Shown: positions 7,051 to 28,555 of the stretch, in pieces
Position numbering within the stretch: position 1 is the stretch's first letter
How the letters are laid out: each line of letters starts with the position of its first letter
Source: Limosilactobacillus caviae
GTDB taxonomy: Bacteria > Bacillota > Bacilli > Lactobacillales > Lactobacillaceae
Direction of reading: 5' to 3'
DNA: 64,000 nt
Assembly: GCF_014635905.1 (NCBI RefSeq)
Contig: NZ_BMDS01000001.1
Span: forward strand, 124,001-188,000
Position numbers and translations under genes: made by a program
Notes under the pieces: generated by a model
The model's database searches: none
What the model was told of the DNA's origin: nothing
What the model saw: the letters and a program-made list of their open reading frames with translations, nothing else

Positions 7051-7199
7051 TAACCGAAAAATAATAAAAAAATTTGTATAATATAAATATAACGATTGAT
7101 TAAGATTGAATTAATAACTATTAATTTTTAGTATCCTTATTATATTTACATTTGTAGTCAATGGACGCTTTTATATTAATAAAATTTCTCAATTTATCA

Positions 7200-7227
7200 T
7201 TGACAAATATTAAAAAACGATTAGAAT
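7200..7227 (+). promoter_or_regulatory. Promoter of the leader-peptide/aminotransferase operon
   Basis: TTGACA (7200-7205) and TAGAAT (7222-7227) are separated by 16 nt. Transcription would start near 7234, about 25 nt before the leader peptide's ATG. Confidence 0.7.
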
Positions 7228-7259
7228 TATTAGTAATCAGTTAATCAAAGGAGGACATA

Positions 7260-7331
7260 ATGATGATCACTGCGACACTTCACTTACATCAAGCGTATGC
7301 CTTCTGGTTTAGCGAAATTACCATCCGCTAA
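7260..7331 (+). CDS. Leader peptide, 23 aa, aromatic/His-rich
   Basis: A strong AAAGGAGG site lies 7 nt before the ATG, and the frame closes at TAA 7329-7331. The peptide ends HLHQAYAFWFSEITIR, with Tyr13, Phe15, Trp16 and Phe17 consecutive or nearly so. The coding region is folded into RNA hairpins and is followed by an intrinsic terminator before the aminotransferase gene. That is the layout of ribosome-mediated attenuation. The peptide itself probably has no function beyond sensing charged tRNA for aromatic amino acids. A small secreted peptide is unlikely: there is no hydrophobic core or leader motif. Confidence 0.7.
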   Translation: MMITATLHLHQAYAFWFSEITIR

Positions 7332-7465
7332 CCAGCAGTGATTTTATCATTGTGGCGTTCTCGGATGAGCCCCAAACATCTGAGAGCCCCTTTTATACTC
7401 ATTCCAATCTGATCAAGGAGCCTTGGATGTTATATTCTATAGCATTCAAGGCTCCTTTATTTTGT
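7266..7465 (+). promoter_or_regulatory. Attenuator with alternative hairpins and terminator
   Basis: CTGGTTTAGCG (7304-7314) pairs with CGCTAACCAG (7326-7335), which contains the leader stop codon. GCAGTGAT (7335-7342) can pair either back to ATCACTGC (7266-7273) in the leader peptide's first codons or forward as CAGTGAT with ATCATTG (7346-7352). CTCGGATG (7360-7367) pairs with CATCTGAG (7377-7384). The last element is a 15-bp hairpin, arms 7415-7429 and 7443-7457, followed by TATTTTG, an intrinsic terminator. TCCAA (7403-7407) could sequester TTGGA in its 5' arm. The pairings are read directly; the switching order is inferred. Confidence 0.7.
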
Positions 7466-7496
7466 AAACTTACATATTATATAGGAGGAATTGGCA

Positions 7497-8684
7497 ATGC
7501 CAGCTACTAAAAAAGGAATTCTTAATCGTCTTAACAATAATTTTGCTAAACTTACTCCCGGCGGAATTCGTGAATTTGACTATCAAGCCAGTTCAATTCC
7601 CGGAATCATTAAATTAACCCTTGGCGAACCCGACTTTAATGTTCCAGACGCAATGAAGCAAGCCGCCATTAATAGTATTAATGACAACGATTCGCATTAC
7701 GCTCCTGGCAATGGGACTTTAGATCTTCGGCAAGCGATTGCTTATTTCATGCAGGATCGTTATCAGCTTAATTATGATCCTGAAAATGAAATTGCTGTGA
7801 CTGTTGGTGCAACGGAAGGTATCTACGCTTCTCTTTCTGCAATCATTAATCCAGGAGATGACATTCTGGTCGCAACACCAACATTTCCGCTCTACATGGT
7901 AGTTACTAAGATTTTAGGCGGGACCCCTGTCGAAATTGATACTAGTGCTGATAACTTTATTCTTACACCTGCTAAGCTCCAAAATGTTCTTGATAAACAT
8001 CCAAATGCTAAGGGGCTGATCCTAAACTACCCTTCAAACCCAACTGGTGTAACTTATACCAAGGCGCAAGTACAGGCTCTGGCAGAAGCAATTAAAGCAA
8101 CTAATTTAGTGGTTATTGCTGATGAAATTTACTCTGAACTGGTATACGACGGTCCTCACACTTCAATCGCCAGCTTTATTCCCGGTCAAACTCTTATCTT
8201 AAATGGCGCTTCAAAGTCACACGCCATGACAGGCTACCGAATCGGCTTCATCGCGGGGCCAAAAGAATTAATGAAGCCAGTTAGTGCAATCCACGCTATG
8301 ATGGTTACAGCCGCATCTGATCCTGCCATGGCCGCCGCTGTTGCCGCTTTTGGTACTGATGCAGGGAAAGAGGCCACTCTTAAAATGAAAGAAGCATACA
8401 AGCAGCGCCGAGATTTTGTCGTTGATGCGTTAAAGCAACTTGGTTTTGATATTACTACGCCAAATGGAGCCTTTTACATTTTCGCTAAGATTCCCGCTCA
8501 ATTTGGCAATAATGATCTAAAATTTGCTACCGACCTCGCCAATCAGGGAAAAGTTGCTGTAATTCCCGGTTCTTTCTTTGGTGCTGGCGGGCAAGGTTAT
8601 GTTCGTATTAGTTACGCTACTAGCATGGACACATTAAAGCAGGCAATGACTAATATCGCTGAGTTCATTAATAAGGAGGACTAA
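7497..8684 (+). CDS. PLP-dependent class I/II aminotransferase
   Basis: 395 aa, normal for the PatA/AraT group. Visible motifs are YAPGNGTLDLRQAI near the N-terminus, NYPSNPTG, ADEIYSELVY, the PLP Schiff-base Lys240 in NGASKSHAMTGYRIGF, and the C-terminal PGSFFG/GYVRISYA region with the carboxylate-binding Arg. It transfers amino groups to 2-oxoglutarate in the cytoplasm. The linked hydroxyacid dehydrogenase and aromatic-rich leader peptide suggest aromatic amino acids as substrate, an inference. The ATG at 7497 (GGAGG 8 nt upstream) is chosen over TTG at 7491. The following gene starts one base after its stop. Confidence 0.85.
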   Translation: MPATKKGILNRLNNNFAKLTPGGIREFDYQASSIPGIIKLTLGEPDFNVPDAMKQAAINSINDNDSHYAPGNGTLDLRQAIAYFMQDRYQLNYDPENEIAVTVGATEGIYASLSAIINPGDDILVATPTFPLYMVVTKILGGTPVEIDTSADNFILTPAKLQNVLDKHPNAKGLILNYPSNPTGVTYTKAQVQALAEAIKATNLVVIADEIYSELVYDGPHTSIASFIPGQTLILNGASKSHAMTGYRIGFIAGPKELMKPVSAIHAMMVTAASDPAMAAAVAAFGTDAGKEATLKMKEAYKQRRDFVVDALKQLGFDITTPNGAFYIFAKIPAQFGNNDLKFATDLANQGKVAVIPGSFFGAGGQGYVRISYATSMDTLKQAMTNIAEFINKED

Positions 8685-8685
8685 A

Positions 8686-9681
8686 ATGACTAAAATTTTA
8701 ATGACAAGTGTGCGGGATGATGAGCAAGCTGCCATTAAGGATTACGCACAGAAAAATAATATTGAAATCATTACAACACCGAAATTGATCGATGAGGCTG
8801 TTGACCTCACTACCGATGTCGATGGATTAGTAATCCAACAACGTAGCAGACTCCCCGAAGATATCTACGCTAAACTCCGTGCAAATGGTCTCAAACAAAT
8901 CGCCACACGGACTGCCGGTTTTGACATGATCAATATCAAGAAAGCCAATGCCAATGGTTTAACAGTGACTAATGTTCCAGCCTACTCACCGCGGAGTGTC
9001 GCTGAATTTGCGTTGATGCAGATTTTTCGGTTACTACGGAAATCTTACCGGTTCGACCATCAAGTCGCACAGAATGATTATCGTTGGTTTAGCGACGAAC
9101 AATCAGTTGAAATTCATACCGCTACAATTGGCATTATTGGTGTCGGACGAATCGGTGGAACCCTTGCAAAATTATTAAAAGCACTCGGCGCAACCGTACT
9201 TGGGTATGACACAAACCCACGAACTGATTTAGATGGGATTGTACAATTCGTTTCTAAAGATGAACTGCTAAAACGTGCAGATGTCGTAAGTCTGCATGTT
9301 GACTTAAACCCGACCTCAAAAGGACTACTTACTACTAAAGATTTTGCCCTAATGAAACCAACCGCTGGACTAGTGAATGCTAGTCGTGGCCCGGTTGTTA
9401 ATACCGCAGACCTCGTTGATGCATTAAAGAACGGAACGATTGCCGCTGCTGCCCTTGATACTTTTGAAGGCGAGGAAACTGTTGCTGCTGCTGACCGCCG
9501 TGAAAAAGGACTTGATGATCAGCCACTCGTTAAAGAATTACATGCCATGAACAATGTAATCCTTACTCCTCATATCGCCTTCTTTACTAACCTCGCTGTA
9601 CAAAACATGGTTGACTTTTCACTTGACGATACTCTTGCTATTCTCAACGGAAAACAGTCCTCACACGAAATCAAATTATAA
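8686..9681 (+). CDS. D-2-hydroxyacid dehydrogenase (D-LDH/hydroxyisocaproate type)
   Basis: 331 aa, the usual length for D-lactate dehydrogenase-like enzymes. It has the Rossmann motif GIIGVGRIGG, Arg234 in ASRGPVV, an acidic residue near 261 in LDTFEGEE and catalytic His296 in TPHIAFF. It reduces 2-oxoacids to D-2-hydroxyacids with NADH. Directly after an aminotransferase, it would turn phenylpyruvate-type oxoacids into phenyllactate or indolelactate, regenerating NAD+. That substrate is inferred from context; ordinary D-lactate formation remains possible. GGAGG overlaps the end of the upstream gene, so the two are translationally linked. Confidence 0.85.
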   Translation: MTKILMTSVRDDEQAAIKDYAQKNNIEIITTPKLIDEAVDLTTDVDGLVIQQRSRLPEDIYAKLRANGLKQIATRTAGFDMINIKKANANGLTVTNVPAYSPRSVAEFALMQIFRLLRKSYRFDHQVAQNDYRWFSDEQSVEIHTATIGIIGVGRIGGTLAKLLKALGATVLGYDTNPRTDLDGIVQFVSKDELLKRADVVSLHVDLNPTSKGLLTTKDFALMKPTAGLVNASRGPVVNTADLVDALKNGTIAAAALDTFEGEETVAAADRREKGLDDQPLVKELHAMNNVILTPHIAFFTNLAVQNMVDFSLDDTLAILNGKQSSHEIKL

Positions 9682-27374: not shown

Positions 27375-28361
27375 TTACTTAAAAATAATTCCATGTTGTT
27401 CTGCTTCCTGCTGGAAATCTGCCGGAACCTTTATTCCTAGTTTATGAGCCTGCTTTAAATTAAGAACAGGTTCTCCATGATGATAATCATTAACTGCCAG
27501 CTGTCCTGCTTTTTCACCTTTCAAGATGCGGGCGGCCATTTTTCCTGCTGCTTTACCTTGTCCATATTGACTAAGGCTAATTGACGCTACTCCACCATCT
27601 TTGACCATTGTATCGGCACTAGGAAAGACCGGCTTATTTACTGCATTCGCATTTTTTACTAATACTCCCATCGATCCGGCAATTATATTGTCACTTGGAA
27701 CAATAACAGCATCAACCTTACTCAACATCGTTTGCGAAGTCTGATCCAGTTCATTAGCATTTGCGATCGTATAAGTTTTTAAATTAACGTGTAATTTACG
27801 CGCGGCTTTAACCATTGTTTGATACTGGCTTTCAGAAGACGTATCACTTGATGTATAAATTACCCCAAGCGTCTTAATATCCGGTATAAACTTCTTTACT
27901 AACGCAACTTGTTGTTCACTGGGATTAACATCATGCACGCCAGTAACATTGCCACCTGGATTTTTTTCATTCTTTACTAGCCCGGCACCAACCGGATCAC
28001 CAATTCCTCCCATCACTATCGGAATATCCTTAGTTGCATTAGCAAGGGCCTGGCAAGCTGGAGTTGTAATACCAACAATAACTTTTGCATGGTCATTTAC
28101 TAATTTGTTTGCCATCGTATTTAGATTTGCTTGATCGCCATTCGCATTCTGATATTCAATTTTTATATTCTTTCCGTTTCGGTATCCTTCTTCCGCTAAA
28201 CCCGCAACAACCCCCTTTTGTATTTGATCTAACGCTGGATGATGTATCATCGTTAAAATCCCTACTACCGGCTTTGTGGTTCGCTGATGAAGTTTTAAAA
28301 GTCCAAAATAGCCCCCAACTATAACAATTCCGACAATAATGTATCTCATAATTCGTTTCAT
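27375..28361 (-). CDS. Tryptophan/tyrosine-type ABC substrate-binding protein (TrpX-like)
   Basis: 328 aa of the periplasmic-binding-like I family (ABC_sub_bind). It has VVGILTMIHHPALDQIQKGVVAGL, EYQNANGDQ, GIGDPVGAGLV, TGVHDV and LGVIYTSSDTSSE. The N-terminal helix (residues 5-22) has no lipobox Cys, so it is probably membrane-anchored. In streptococci TrpX binds aromatic amino acids for a TrpXYZ importer; here no permease or ATPase gene is adjacent. GGAG precedes the ATG at 28361. The upstream leader peptide with a Trp codon supports a tryptophan role. Confidence 0.82.
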   Translation of the reverse strand: MKRIMRYIIVGIVIVGGYFGLLKLHQRTTKPVVGILTMIHHPALDQIQKGVVAGLAEEGYRNGKNIKIEYQNANGDQANLNTMANKLVNDHAKVIVGITTPACQALANATKDIPIVMGGIGDPVGAGLVKNEKNPGGNVTGVHDVNPSEQQVALVKKFIPDIKTLGVIYTSSDTSSESQYQTMVKAARKLHVNLKTYTIANANELDQTSQTMLSKVDAVIVPSDNIIAGSMGVLVKNANAVNKPVFPSADTMVKDGGVASISLSQYGQGKAAGKMAARILKGEKAGQLAVNDYHHGEPVLNLKQAHKLGIKVPADFQQEAEQHGIIFK

Positions 28362-28383
28362 CACTATCTCCACCTTTCAAAAT

Positions 28384-28555
28384 AAAAAGGAGCTCCACGT
28401 TCGGAACTCCCACTATTTTTCAGTGAAATAGAAAAAGCCCGTACGTGAAATCCGTACAGGCCCTGTTTGTACATGATAAAGAAGCCGGTACAGATATAAT
28501 CTGTGAATTAACCCAGGTCATATCTGTACAACAGCTATCCCTGAGTTACCGGCTT
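28384..28555 (-). promoter_or_regulatory. Attenuator with competing hairpins and two tandem terminators
   Basis: Plus-strand coordinates. AAGCCGGTA (28482-28490) can pair with TACCGGCTT (28547-28555). TAACCCAGG (28509-28517) can pair with CCTGAGTTA (28540-28548). GTACAGATAT (28488-28497) can pair with ATATCTGTAC (28520-28529). These overlap and cannot all form at once. Towards the gene follow a terminator with arms 28437-28445 and 28453-28461 plus T5, and a second with arms 28389-28396 and 28403-28410 plus TTTTTATTTT. Confidence 0.7.

What the first reader, a model, noticed from the sequence alone, without database searches (positions are those of the whole stretch)
7200..7496. Aromatic-codon leader peptide and attenuator before an aminotransferase-hydroxyacid dehydrogenase operon
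A promoter, a strong ribosome site, a 23-codon ORF with Tyr-Ala-Phe-Trp-Phe, mutually exclusive hairpins and a strong terminator precede two genes able to turn aromatic amino acids into aryl-lactates. Lactobacilli usually use T-boxes for amino-acid sensing, so ribosome-mediated control of phenyllactate/indolelactate formation would be new. The two His codons could add a second signal.
Basis: partly seen in the sequence, partly recalled or inferred. Interest (0 to 1): 0.75.

Follow-up and report, generated by a model that had tools for sequence, protein, structure and literature searches.

The report
Aromatic-sensing leader peptide transcription switch
A tiny gene rich in phenylalanine, tyrosine and tryptophan codons sits in front of an enzyme pair in gut and food lactic acid bacteria and probably lets the ribosome switch those enzymes on when aromatic amino acids run short.

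Summary
Window 7200-7497 has a promoter, ribosome site, 23-codon leader ORF (MMITATLHLHQAYAFWFSEITIR), alternative hairpins and a terminator before an aminotransferase / D-2-hydroxyacid dehydrogenase pair. In the genus, 36 of 38 aminotransferase orthologues carry such a leader; 37 of 80 named loci do, in five named genera. Across 48 distinct peptides only an aromatic cluster is constant, and its residues swap among Phe, Tyr and Trp (AYAFWF, AFYYWFW, FYFWYF, YLAWFFF). This points to sensing of charged aromatic tRNAs, not to an arrest peptide. Five alternating helices covary: a relay form of classical attenuation in which a stall means read-through. So the operon should be ON in aromatic starvation, the opposite of simple induction of aryl-lactate formation. 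No prephenate dehydratase was found in 39 genus genomes that carry the aminotransferase, which suggests salvage of aryl-keto/hydroxy acids. A histidine signal is not supported. Equilibrium folding shows the switch in about half of the representatives, not in the window's own sequence. No experiment was possible. Ten literature searches listed no earlier description.

The parts
7200..7227 (+). sigma-A-type promoter (TTGACA, 16 nt, TAGAAT)
   Evidence: TTGAC and most of the -10 region conserved in A1
7247..7254 (+). ribosome binding site AAAGGAGG of the leader
   Evidence: GGAG-type site in the relatives
7260..7331 (+). leader peptide ORF MMITATLHLHQAYAFWFSEITIR, 23 codons plus TAA
7296..7310 (+). 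control codons Tyr-Ala-Phe-Trp-Phe
   Evidence: aromatic at position -3 in 48 of 48, -1 in 44 of 48, Trp in 44 of 48, aromatic at +1 in 47 of 48 distinct peptides
7304..7314 (+). segment 1 (5' arm of leader hairpin, overlaps the control codons)
7324..7342 (+). segment 2: pairs with segment 1 (core 7326-7335) or with segment 4
7354..7367 (+). segment 4: pairs with 2 or 5
7377..7390 (+). segment 5: pairs with 4 or 6
7415..7434 (+). segment 6: 5' arm of the terminator, or antiterminator with 5
7438..7464 (+). segment 7 and T-rich tail of the intrinsic terminator
7497..8684 (+). class I/II PLP aminotransferase (probably aromatic; araT-like)
   Evidence: PF00155, best NCBIfam PRK07309 below its cut-off; nearest solved chain 4my5
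8686..9681 (+). D-2-hydroxyacid dehydrogenase (fldH-like)
   Evidence: PF02826/PF00389, below the NCBIfam cut-offs; nearest solved chain 4xkj, an enzyme that reduces phenylpyruvate to D-phenyllactate (PMC4580590, passages)

Best explanation
A ribosome-mediated transcription attenuator that reads the supply of charged tRNAs for Phe, Tyr and Trp together. When aromatic amino acids suffice, the ribosome finishes the leader and covers segments 1 and 2. Then 4:5 forms, 6:7 forms and transcription stops before the aminotransferase. When an aromatic tRNA is uncharged, the ribosome stalls on the cluster in segment 1. Segment 2 then pairs with 4, 5 is free to pair with 6, and transcription runs through. 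Without translation, 1:2 forms and termination is again favoured. Shown here: conservation of ORF, cluster, helices and terminator, and covariation of both states. Inferred: the stall, the read-through and the physiological direction. Likely purpose (inferred): getting aromatic amino acids from aryl-keto or aryl-hydroxy acids in bacteria that seem unable to make phenylalanine.
For: Leader in 36 of 38 genus orthologues and in 37 of 80 named loci. Aromatic identity is interchangeable while the cluster is fixed. A hairpin of -17 to -31 kcal/mol with a T-rich tail precedes the structural gene in 40 of 40 extracted leaders. Helices 2:4 and 5:6, not used to define the segments, beat at least 95% of shuffles in 19 of 22 representatives each and at least 90% of cross-species pairings in 14 of 22 each; forbidden pairs 1:4, 2:5, 4:6, 2:6 beat the shuffles in 2, 1, 2 and 0 of 22. 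In A2 (17 sequences) OFF pairs have 58 double-change cells against 25.5 shuffled, ON pairs 41 against 17.2; 0 of 500 shuffles reach either. With the ribosome on the aromatic codons mean P(4:5) is 0.65, near the stop codon 0.92; shuffling segment 2 removes the dip (0.80-0.91 at the cluster; 0 of 25 rounds as low). Where the aminotransferase pair is gone from the locus (L027, L028, L030) the aromatic codons are gone as well.
Against: In the window's own sequence (L002) equilibrium P(4:5) stays 0.9 with a stalled ribosome. Only 12 of 22 representatives drop below 0.5; 14 of 22 beat their shuffles, two of these (L023, L083) by dips of little size. Pairing of segment 4 separates cluster codons from other codons no better than when segment 4 is shuffled. 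In the ON state the count of further pair types is not beyond shuffles (68 of 500 reach it). A study grew L. reuteri in BHI with 1 mM Trp and saw 5 of 6 araT genes rise (PMC9685921, section 6 read); which locus did not rise is not given in that section. Two of 38 orthologues lack the leader (G034, G042). No expression data.
Confidence: 0.85

Rival explanations
1. A nascent-chain arrest peptide (TnaC-like, recalled) senses a free aromatic amino acid or metabolite and turns the operon on when it is abundant, as a catabolic operon would want.
For: The dehydrogenase's nearest solved relative makes D-phenyllactate; 5 of 6 araT genes rose with Trp in one study.
Against: No residue outside the cluster is constant, 2 to 9 residues follow the Trp-aromatic pair, and order and kind of aromatics change. 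An arrest peptide should keep specific residues and a fixed stall site.
Confidence: 0.07
2. A constitutive upstream ORF and terminator with no amino-acid response; the ORF only insulates or sets a basal level.
For: No expression data; the window sequence shows no equilibrium switch.
Against: Retained aromatic cluster in one frame only, covarying alternative helices, co-loss with the operon.
Confidence: 0.05
3. Same attenuator, but the physiological job is not salvage: aromatic starvation is only a proxy for general amino-acid shortage or for redox balancing by the dehydrogenase. (This competes with the purpose, not with the mechanism.)
For: A dehydrogenase motif follows in 29 of 37 named leader loci; enzymes of this family act broadly on keto acids (PMC6303947, passages).
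Against: In one W. confusa and one Leuconostoc inhae locus tested with Pfam the next gene is a PTS_EIIC_2 membrane protein; the only codon cluster kept is aromatic.
Confidence: 0.3

Closest known systems
Leader-peptide attenuators of enteric bacteria (E. coli pheL-pheA; trp, his, thr operons)
   Same: Short ORF with control codons, alternative RNA helices, terminator, stall means read-through (mechanism recalled; pheL annotation seen).
   Different: Mixed, interchangeable Phe/Tyr/Trp codons; five alternating helices where the classical scheme (recalled) has three; aminotransferase-hydroxyacid dehydrogenase target in apparent Phe auxotrophs.
Leader-peptide attenuators in Firmicutes: hisS/hisZ and his operons, S. 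aureus ilv-leu (PMC2965389, PMC9413887, PMC5794164; passages)
   Same: Same mechanism type in Gram-positives.
   Different: His or Leu/Ile codons, other genes, other orders; for histidine genes of Lactobacillales the passages report T-boxes.
T-box riboswitches (RF00230)
   Same: Also sense tRNA charging (recalled) and are common in the same genome (28 matches).
   Different: No ORF needed. Neither Rfam scan matched a T-box in 7150-7500.
araT-fldH gene pair of L. reuteri (PMC9685921, passages and section 6)
   Same: Aminotransferase directly adjacent to a phenyllactate-dehydrogenase-like gene, as here; that it is the same locus is likely, not shown.
   Different: That paper discusses indole derivatives; the terms leader peptide, attenuator, terminator, riboswitch, T-box and starvation do not occur in its main text.

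Membership tests
Ribosome-mediated (leader peptide) transcription attenuator | Short ORF with its own ribosome site upstream of the operon | tested here: met
   (ORF and site conserved; translation itself not measured)
Ribosome-mediated (leader peptide) transcription attenuator | Cluster of codons for the sensed amino acids, conserved as amino acids | tested here: met
Ribosome-mediated (leader peptide) transcription attenuator | Mutually exclusive antiterminator and terminator helices, supported by covariation | tested here: met
   (pair counts made on A2 only, not on A1)
Ribosome-mediated (leader peptide) transcription attenuator | Intrinsic terminator before the first structural gene | tested here: met
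   (40 of 40)
Ribosome-mediated (leader peptide) transcription attenuator | Ribosome on control codons shifts RNA to the antiterminator state | tested here: inconclusive
   Equilibrium folding: 14 of 22 representatives show a segment-2-dependent dip (12 below 0.5), the window's own sequence does not; one related measure failed its control
Ribosome-mediated (leader peptide) transcription attenuator | Read-through rises when the cognate aminoacyl-tRNA is scarce | not testable with these tools
   needs reporters
T-box riboswitch | Match to the T-box covariance model | tested here: not met
   no T-box in 7150-7500 although 28 matches exist in the genome
Arrest peptide (TnaC-like) | Conserved specific residues and fixed distance to the stall site or stop codon | tested here: not met

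The most novel reading that the evidence does not exclude
The araT-fldH operon of gut lactobacilli, seen as a producer of aryl-lactates and AhR ligands, is in fact a starvation-induced scavenging operon. A pan-aromatic ribosome switch turns it on to regenerate Phe, Tyr and Trp from aryl-pyruvates or D-aryl-lactates in Phe auxotrophs; aryl-lactate release is the reverse flux when amino acids return.
Probability: 0.35. Interest if true: 0.75.

Novelty: new member of a known kind. Interest (0 to 1): 0.6.

Why it matters
It shows a leader-peptide attenuator with pan-aromatic control codons and a five-helix relay, kept in several genera of lactic acid bacteria and standing in a genome with 28 T-box matches. 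It makes a sharp, cheap prediction about when relatives of L. reuteri express the araT-fldH pair linked to indole- and phenyllactate: in aromatic starvation, not in excess. That bears on food fermentation metabolites and on host AhR signalling.

Tried and rejected
His codons as a second signal: rejected, not conserved. T-box or other Rfam family: no T-box; the five sub-threshold hits belong to two microRNA families, sok and a plastid intron, read as chance hairpins. Second leader in other genomes suggested by short DNA hits (53-93 of the query): these start a long ORF that looks like a membrane protein by eye, not a leader. Short promoter hits L027, L028, L030: the aminotransferase pair is absent from the locus; a promoter, non-aromatic short ORF and terminator-like hairpins remain before an OsmC-like ORF. 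Exact AYxFWF pattern across the family: 9 of 396 genomes, one genus of 40; other genera use other orders. A looser aromatic pattern across the order was too noisy (239 of 395 genomes, reversed control also frequent); recurrent hits in another family lie upstream of an rpoB-like ORF (recognised by eye) and are not leaders. It did yield one true-looking leader outside the family, G599 (MSNSLKLKQANFYYFWFFTIDL). Among 26 aminotransferase loci of that family the script found it plus two other short ORFs (L221, L223: TTG starts, scattered aromatics) that I dropped by eye. The metric 'any upstream pairing of segment 6' was uninformative. The first contrast of cluster against other codons looked significant (footprints 9, 12 and 15), but for pairing of segment 4 it failed its control, so I do not use those p-values. 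Script hits L120 and L149 were dropped as spurious (L149 inspected; L120 has the same upstream short ORF as L088/L089). Segments were defined by folding 1 with 2, 4 with 5 and 6 with 7, so these three pairs are partly circular; 2:4 and 5:6 are not. L005 (start of the aminotransferase interrupted) and L025 (contig edge) were dropped by the extraction, so 40 of 42 leaders went on; (duplex tests), 57, 77 and 78 used 22 of these 40 (redundant ones removed). One search used the 40 plus 15 chosen, one per species or so.

Full report
What is there. The region 7200-7497 holds a promoter (TTGACA-16-TAGAAT), AAAGGAGG, a 23-codon ORF at 7260-7331, and a terminator stem at 7415-7457 with a T-rich tail. 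The aminotransferase starts at 7497 and the D-2-hydroxyacid dehydrogenase at 8686. The RNA folds far better than shuffles (z = -7.6). Its aminotransferase is 88% identical to that of Lactobacillus sp. 0.1XD8-4 and 80% to that of an L. reuteri strain, so this is a Limosilactobacillus near, but probably not in, L. reuteri.

Conservation in the genus. The DNA stretch finds matches, short ones included, in 35 of 50 genus genomes. Twenty-five of these are full leaders: 23 have the core AYxFWF and two have AYDYWF. Searching instead with the aminotransferase gives 38 orthologues at 56-100% identity, one per genome; the remaining listed matches are 35-53% and taken as paralogues. Of the 38, 36 have a leader: 24 of the above (G027's leader sits at a contig edge and its gene is not seen) and 12 with other aromatic orders, such as AFYYWFW, AFYAYWF, TFYFWF, VYYCWFW and YLAWFFF. 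The two exceptions are G034, where the gene abuts another gene directly, and G042, where only 107 bases of contig lie upstream.

Beyond the genus. Of 161 family genomes, 15 had close relatives of the aminotransferase (E <= 1e-142); of the ten outside the genus, five show a leader. In the named collection, 37 of 80 loci have one: Limosilactobacillus, Weissella confusa, Periweissella beninensis, many Leuconostoc, Furfurilactobacillus and one uncultured lactobacillus. The other 43 show none; many are more distant copies, but some Weissella, Leuconostoc and Convivina copies of similar identity (53-57%) also lack it. One leader lies outside the family (G599); its aminotransferase is closer to that of Leuconostoc fallax (about 50%) than to the best relative in its own family (48%), so transfer is possible.

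What is conserved. I compared 48 distinct peptides from 55 leaders. Counting from the Trp, position -3 is Tyr or Phe in 48 of 48, -1 is aromatic in 44, position 0 is Trp in 44 (Lys in 4 Leuconostoc), and +1 is aromatic in 47. All have Phe and Tyr, 44 have Trp. No other position is constant, and 2 to 9 residues follow the Trp-aromatic pair among the 40 extracted leaders. His occurs in 21 and twice or more in 6. The other two reading frames show no such cluster. This fits sensing of tRNA charging for all three aromatics, Phe and Tyr above all.

The switch. All 40 extracted leaders have a hairpin of -17 to -31 kcal/mol with a T-rich tail before the structural gene; the finder looked for such a hairpin, so this is presence, not a test against chance. 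Segments were defined by folding. In 22 divergent representatives the pairs 2:4 and 5:6, which were not used for the definition, beat at least 95% of shuffles in 19 of 22 each; their mean duplex energies are -16.6 and -16.0 kcal/mol within a sequence and -11.3 and -10.2 between sequences, and they beat at least 90% of cross pairings in 14 of 22 each. Pairs the model forbids (1:4, 2:5, 4:6, 2:6) beat the shuffles in 2, 1, 2 and 0 of 22. On alignment A2 (17 sequences, aligned by sequence alone; pairs taken from one member, L075), the OFF pairs show 17 pairs with double changes (12.4 shuffled, 5 of 500) and the ON pairs 15 (9.7 shuffled, 0 of 500), with covariation scores of 0.319 and 0.376 against shuffled 0.182 and 0.216 (0 of 500 each). 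The count of further pair types is weaker: 7 of 500 for OFF, 68 of 500 for ON. A structure taken from one member leans to itself on the percentage paired; sliding the partners by one to three columns lowers every measure. Alignment A1 was not counted. The order of helices gives the logic: 1:2, 4:5 and 6:7 together (OFF); 2:4 and 5:6 together (ON).

Ribosome position test. Hiding the RNA under a ribosome on the aromatic codons lowers P(4:5) to a mean of 0.65 from 0.92 near the stop codon in 22 representatives. With segment 2 shuffled the value at the cluster stays 0.80-0.91, and 0 of 25 rounds reach the real one. Fourteen of 22 beat their own shuffles, but in two of these (L023, L083) the dip is small; 12 of 22 fall below 0.5. 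The window's own sequence does not: its 4:5 hairpin stays at 0.9. A related measure, pairing of segment 4 before 5 is made, separates cluster from stop codon better than its control (0.41 against 0.23-0.29) but does not separate cluster from other codons better than its control (0.17 against 0.11-0.20). So folding supports the direction across the family, not for this one sequence.

Natural losses. In G042, G001 and G011 the aminotransferase pair is absent from this locus (G042 keeps an aminotransferase elsewhere, without leader). The promoter and hairpins remain before an OsmC-like ORF, but the short ORF has no aromatic codons (L027, L028, L030).

Function. The aminotransferase belongs to PF00155 and falls below every curated NCBIfam cut-off among the 25 of 73 families shown, so its substrate is not proven; the dehydrogenase too is below its cut-offs. 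The dehydrogenase is nearest to 4XKJ, which reduces phenylpyruvate to D-phenyllactate (PMC4580590, passages). L. reuteri was reported to have araT directly next to a phenyllactate-dehydrogenase-like gene (PMC9685921, section 6). Prephenate dehydratase was found in 3 of 60 genomes searched, all three in the genus and all three without the aminotransferase orthologue: 3 of 11 genomes without it and 0 of 39 with it, counting G027 as a carrier; some of these genomes are incomplete. Counting G027 as lacking, Fisher gives p = 0.011; the genomes are related to each other, so this is weak statistics. Carriers therefore seem unable to make Phe. Starvation-ON control then makes sense for salvage of aryl-keto or aryl-hydroxy acids. 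In one W. confusa locus the aminotransferase is followed within a few bases by a PTS_EIIC_2 membrane protein and not by the dehydrogenase; Leuconostoc inhae has the same family next. A dehydrogenase motif follows in 29 of the 37 named leader loci (in L103 only at +334). The salvage purpose is inference.

Known or new. The same genome has 28 T-box matches, 15 over the cut-off; for histidine genes of Lactobacillales T-boxes are described as the most common control (PMC9413887, passages). Leader peptides in other Firmicutes are described for histidine genes (PMC2965389, PMC9413887; passages) and for ilv-leu in S. aureus (PMC5794164; passages). Ten full-text searches listed no paper whose title or abstract start describes an aromatic leader-peptide attenuator in Lactobacillales; several lists were capped (for example 10 of 183 papers, 12 of 47), and subscription papers, including Panina et al. 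2003 (seen only as a reference), could not be read. I file it as a new member of a known kind, with two unusual traits: interchangeable pan-aromatic codons and a five-helix relay.

Noticed in passing
window 7396-7413: TACTCATTCCAATCTGAT between segments 5 and 6 is almost invariant in the AYxFWFS group and partly survives in operon-less remnant loci L027, L028, L030; the switch model gives it no role.
   Followed up: no
window 28425-28530 (-): Rfam trpB motif (RF04312, 85.8 bits) just upstream of an ORF at 27375-28373 (-) that looks like a transporter substrate-binding protein by eye.
   Followed up: no
L005 / L057 (G037): The leader is intact but the aminotransferase match has two in-frame TAA codons.
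   Followed up: no
L113:4206-5246, L123:4339-5418: A PTS_EIIC_2 (PF13303) membrane protein follows the leader-aminotransferase unit in W. confusa and Leuconostoc inhae where the dehydrogenase would be: possible transporter of the salvaged acids.
   Followed up: partly
L027, L028, L030: Remnant leader: promoter, short non-aromatic ORF and terminator-like hairpins kept before an OsmC-like ORF where the aminotransferase pair is absent.
   Followed up: partly
L090, L091 (G157, G101) and named L117, L119, L132: Leuconostoc-type leaders in which the Trp codon is replaced by Lys (YYFKYF, FYFKYF), leaving a Phe/Tyr-only sensor.
   Followed up: no
L209-L212: Recurrent U-rich stretch reading FYFWFFF upstream of an rpoB-like ORF in another family of the order; may be the Lacto-rpoB element (name recalled, not tested), not a leader peptide.
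   Followed up: partly
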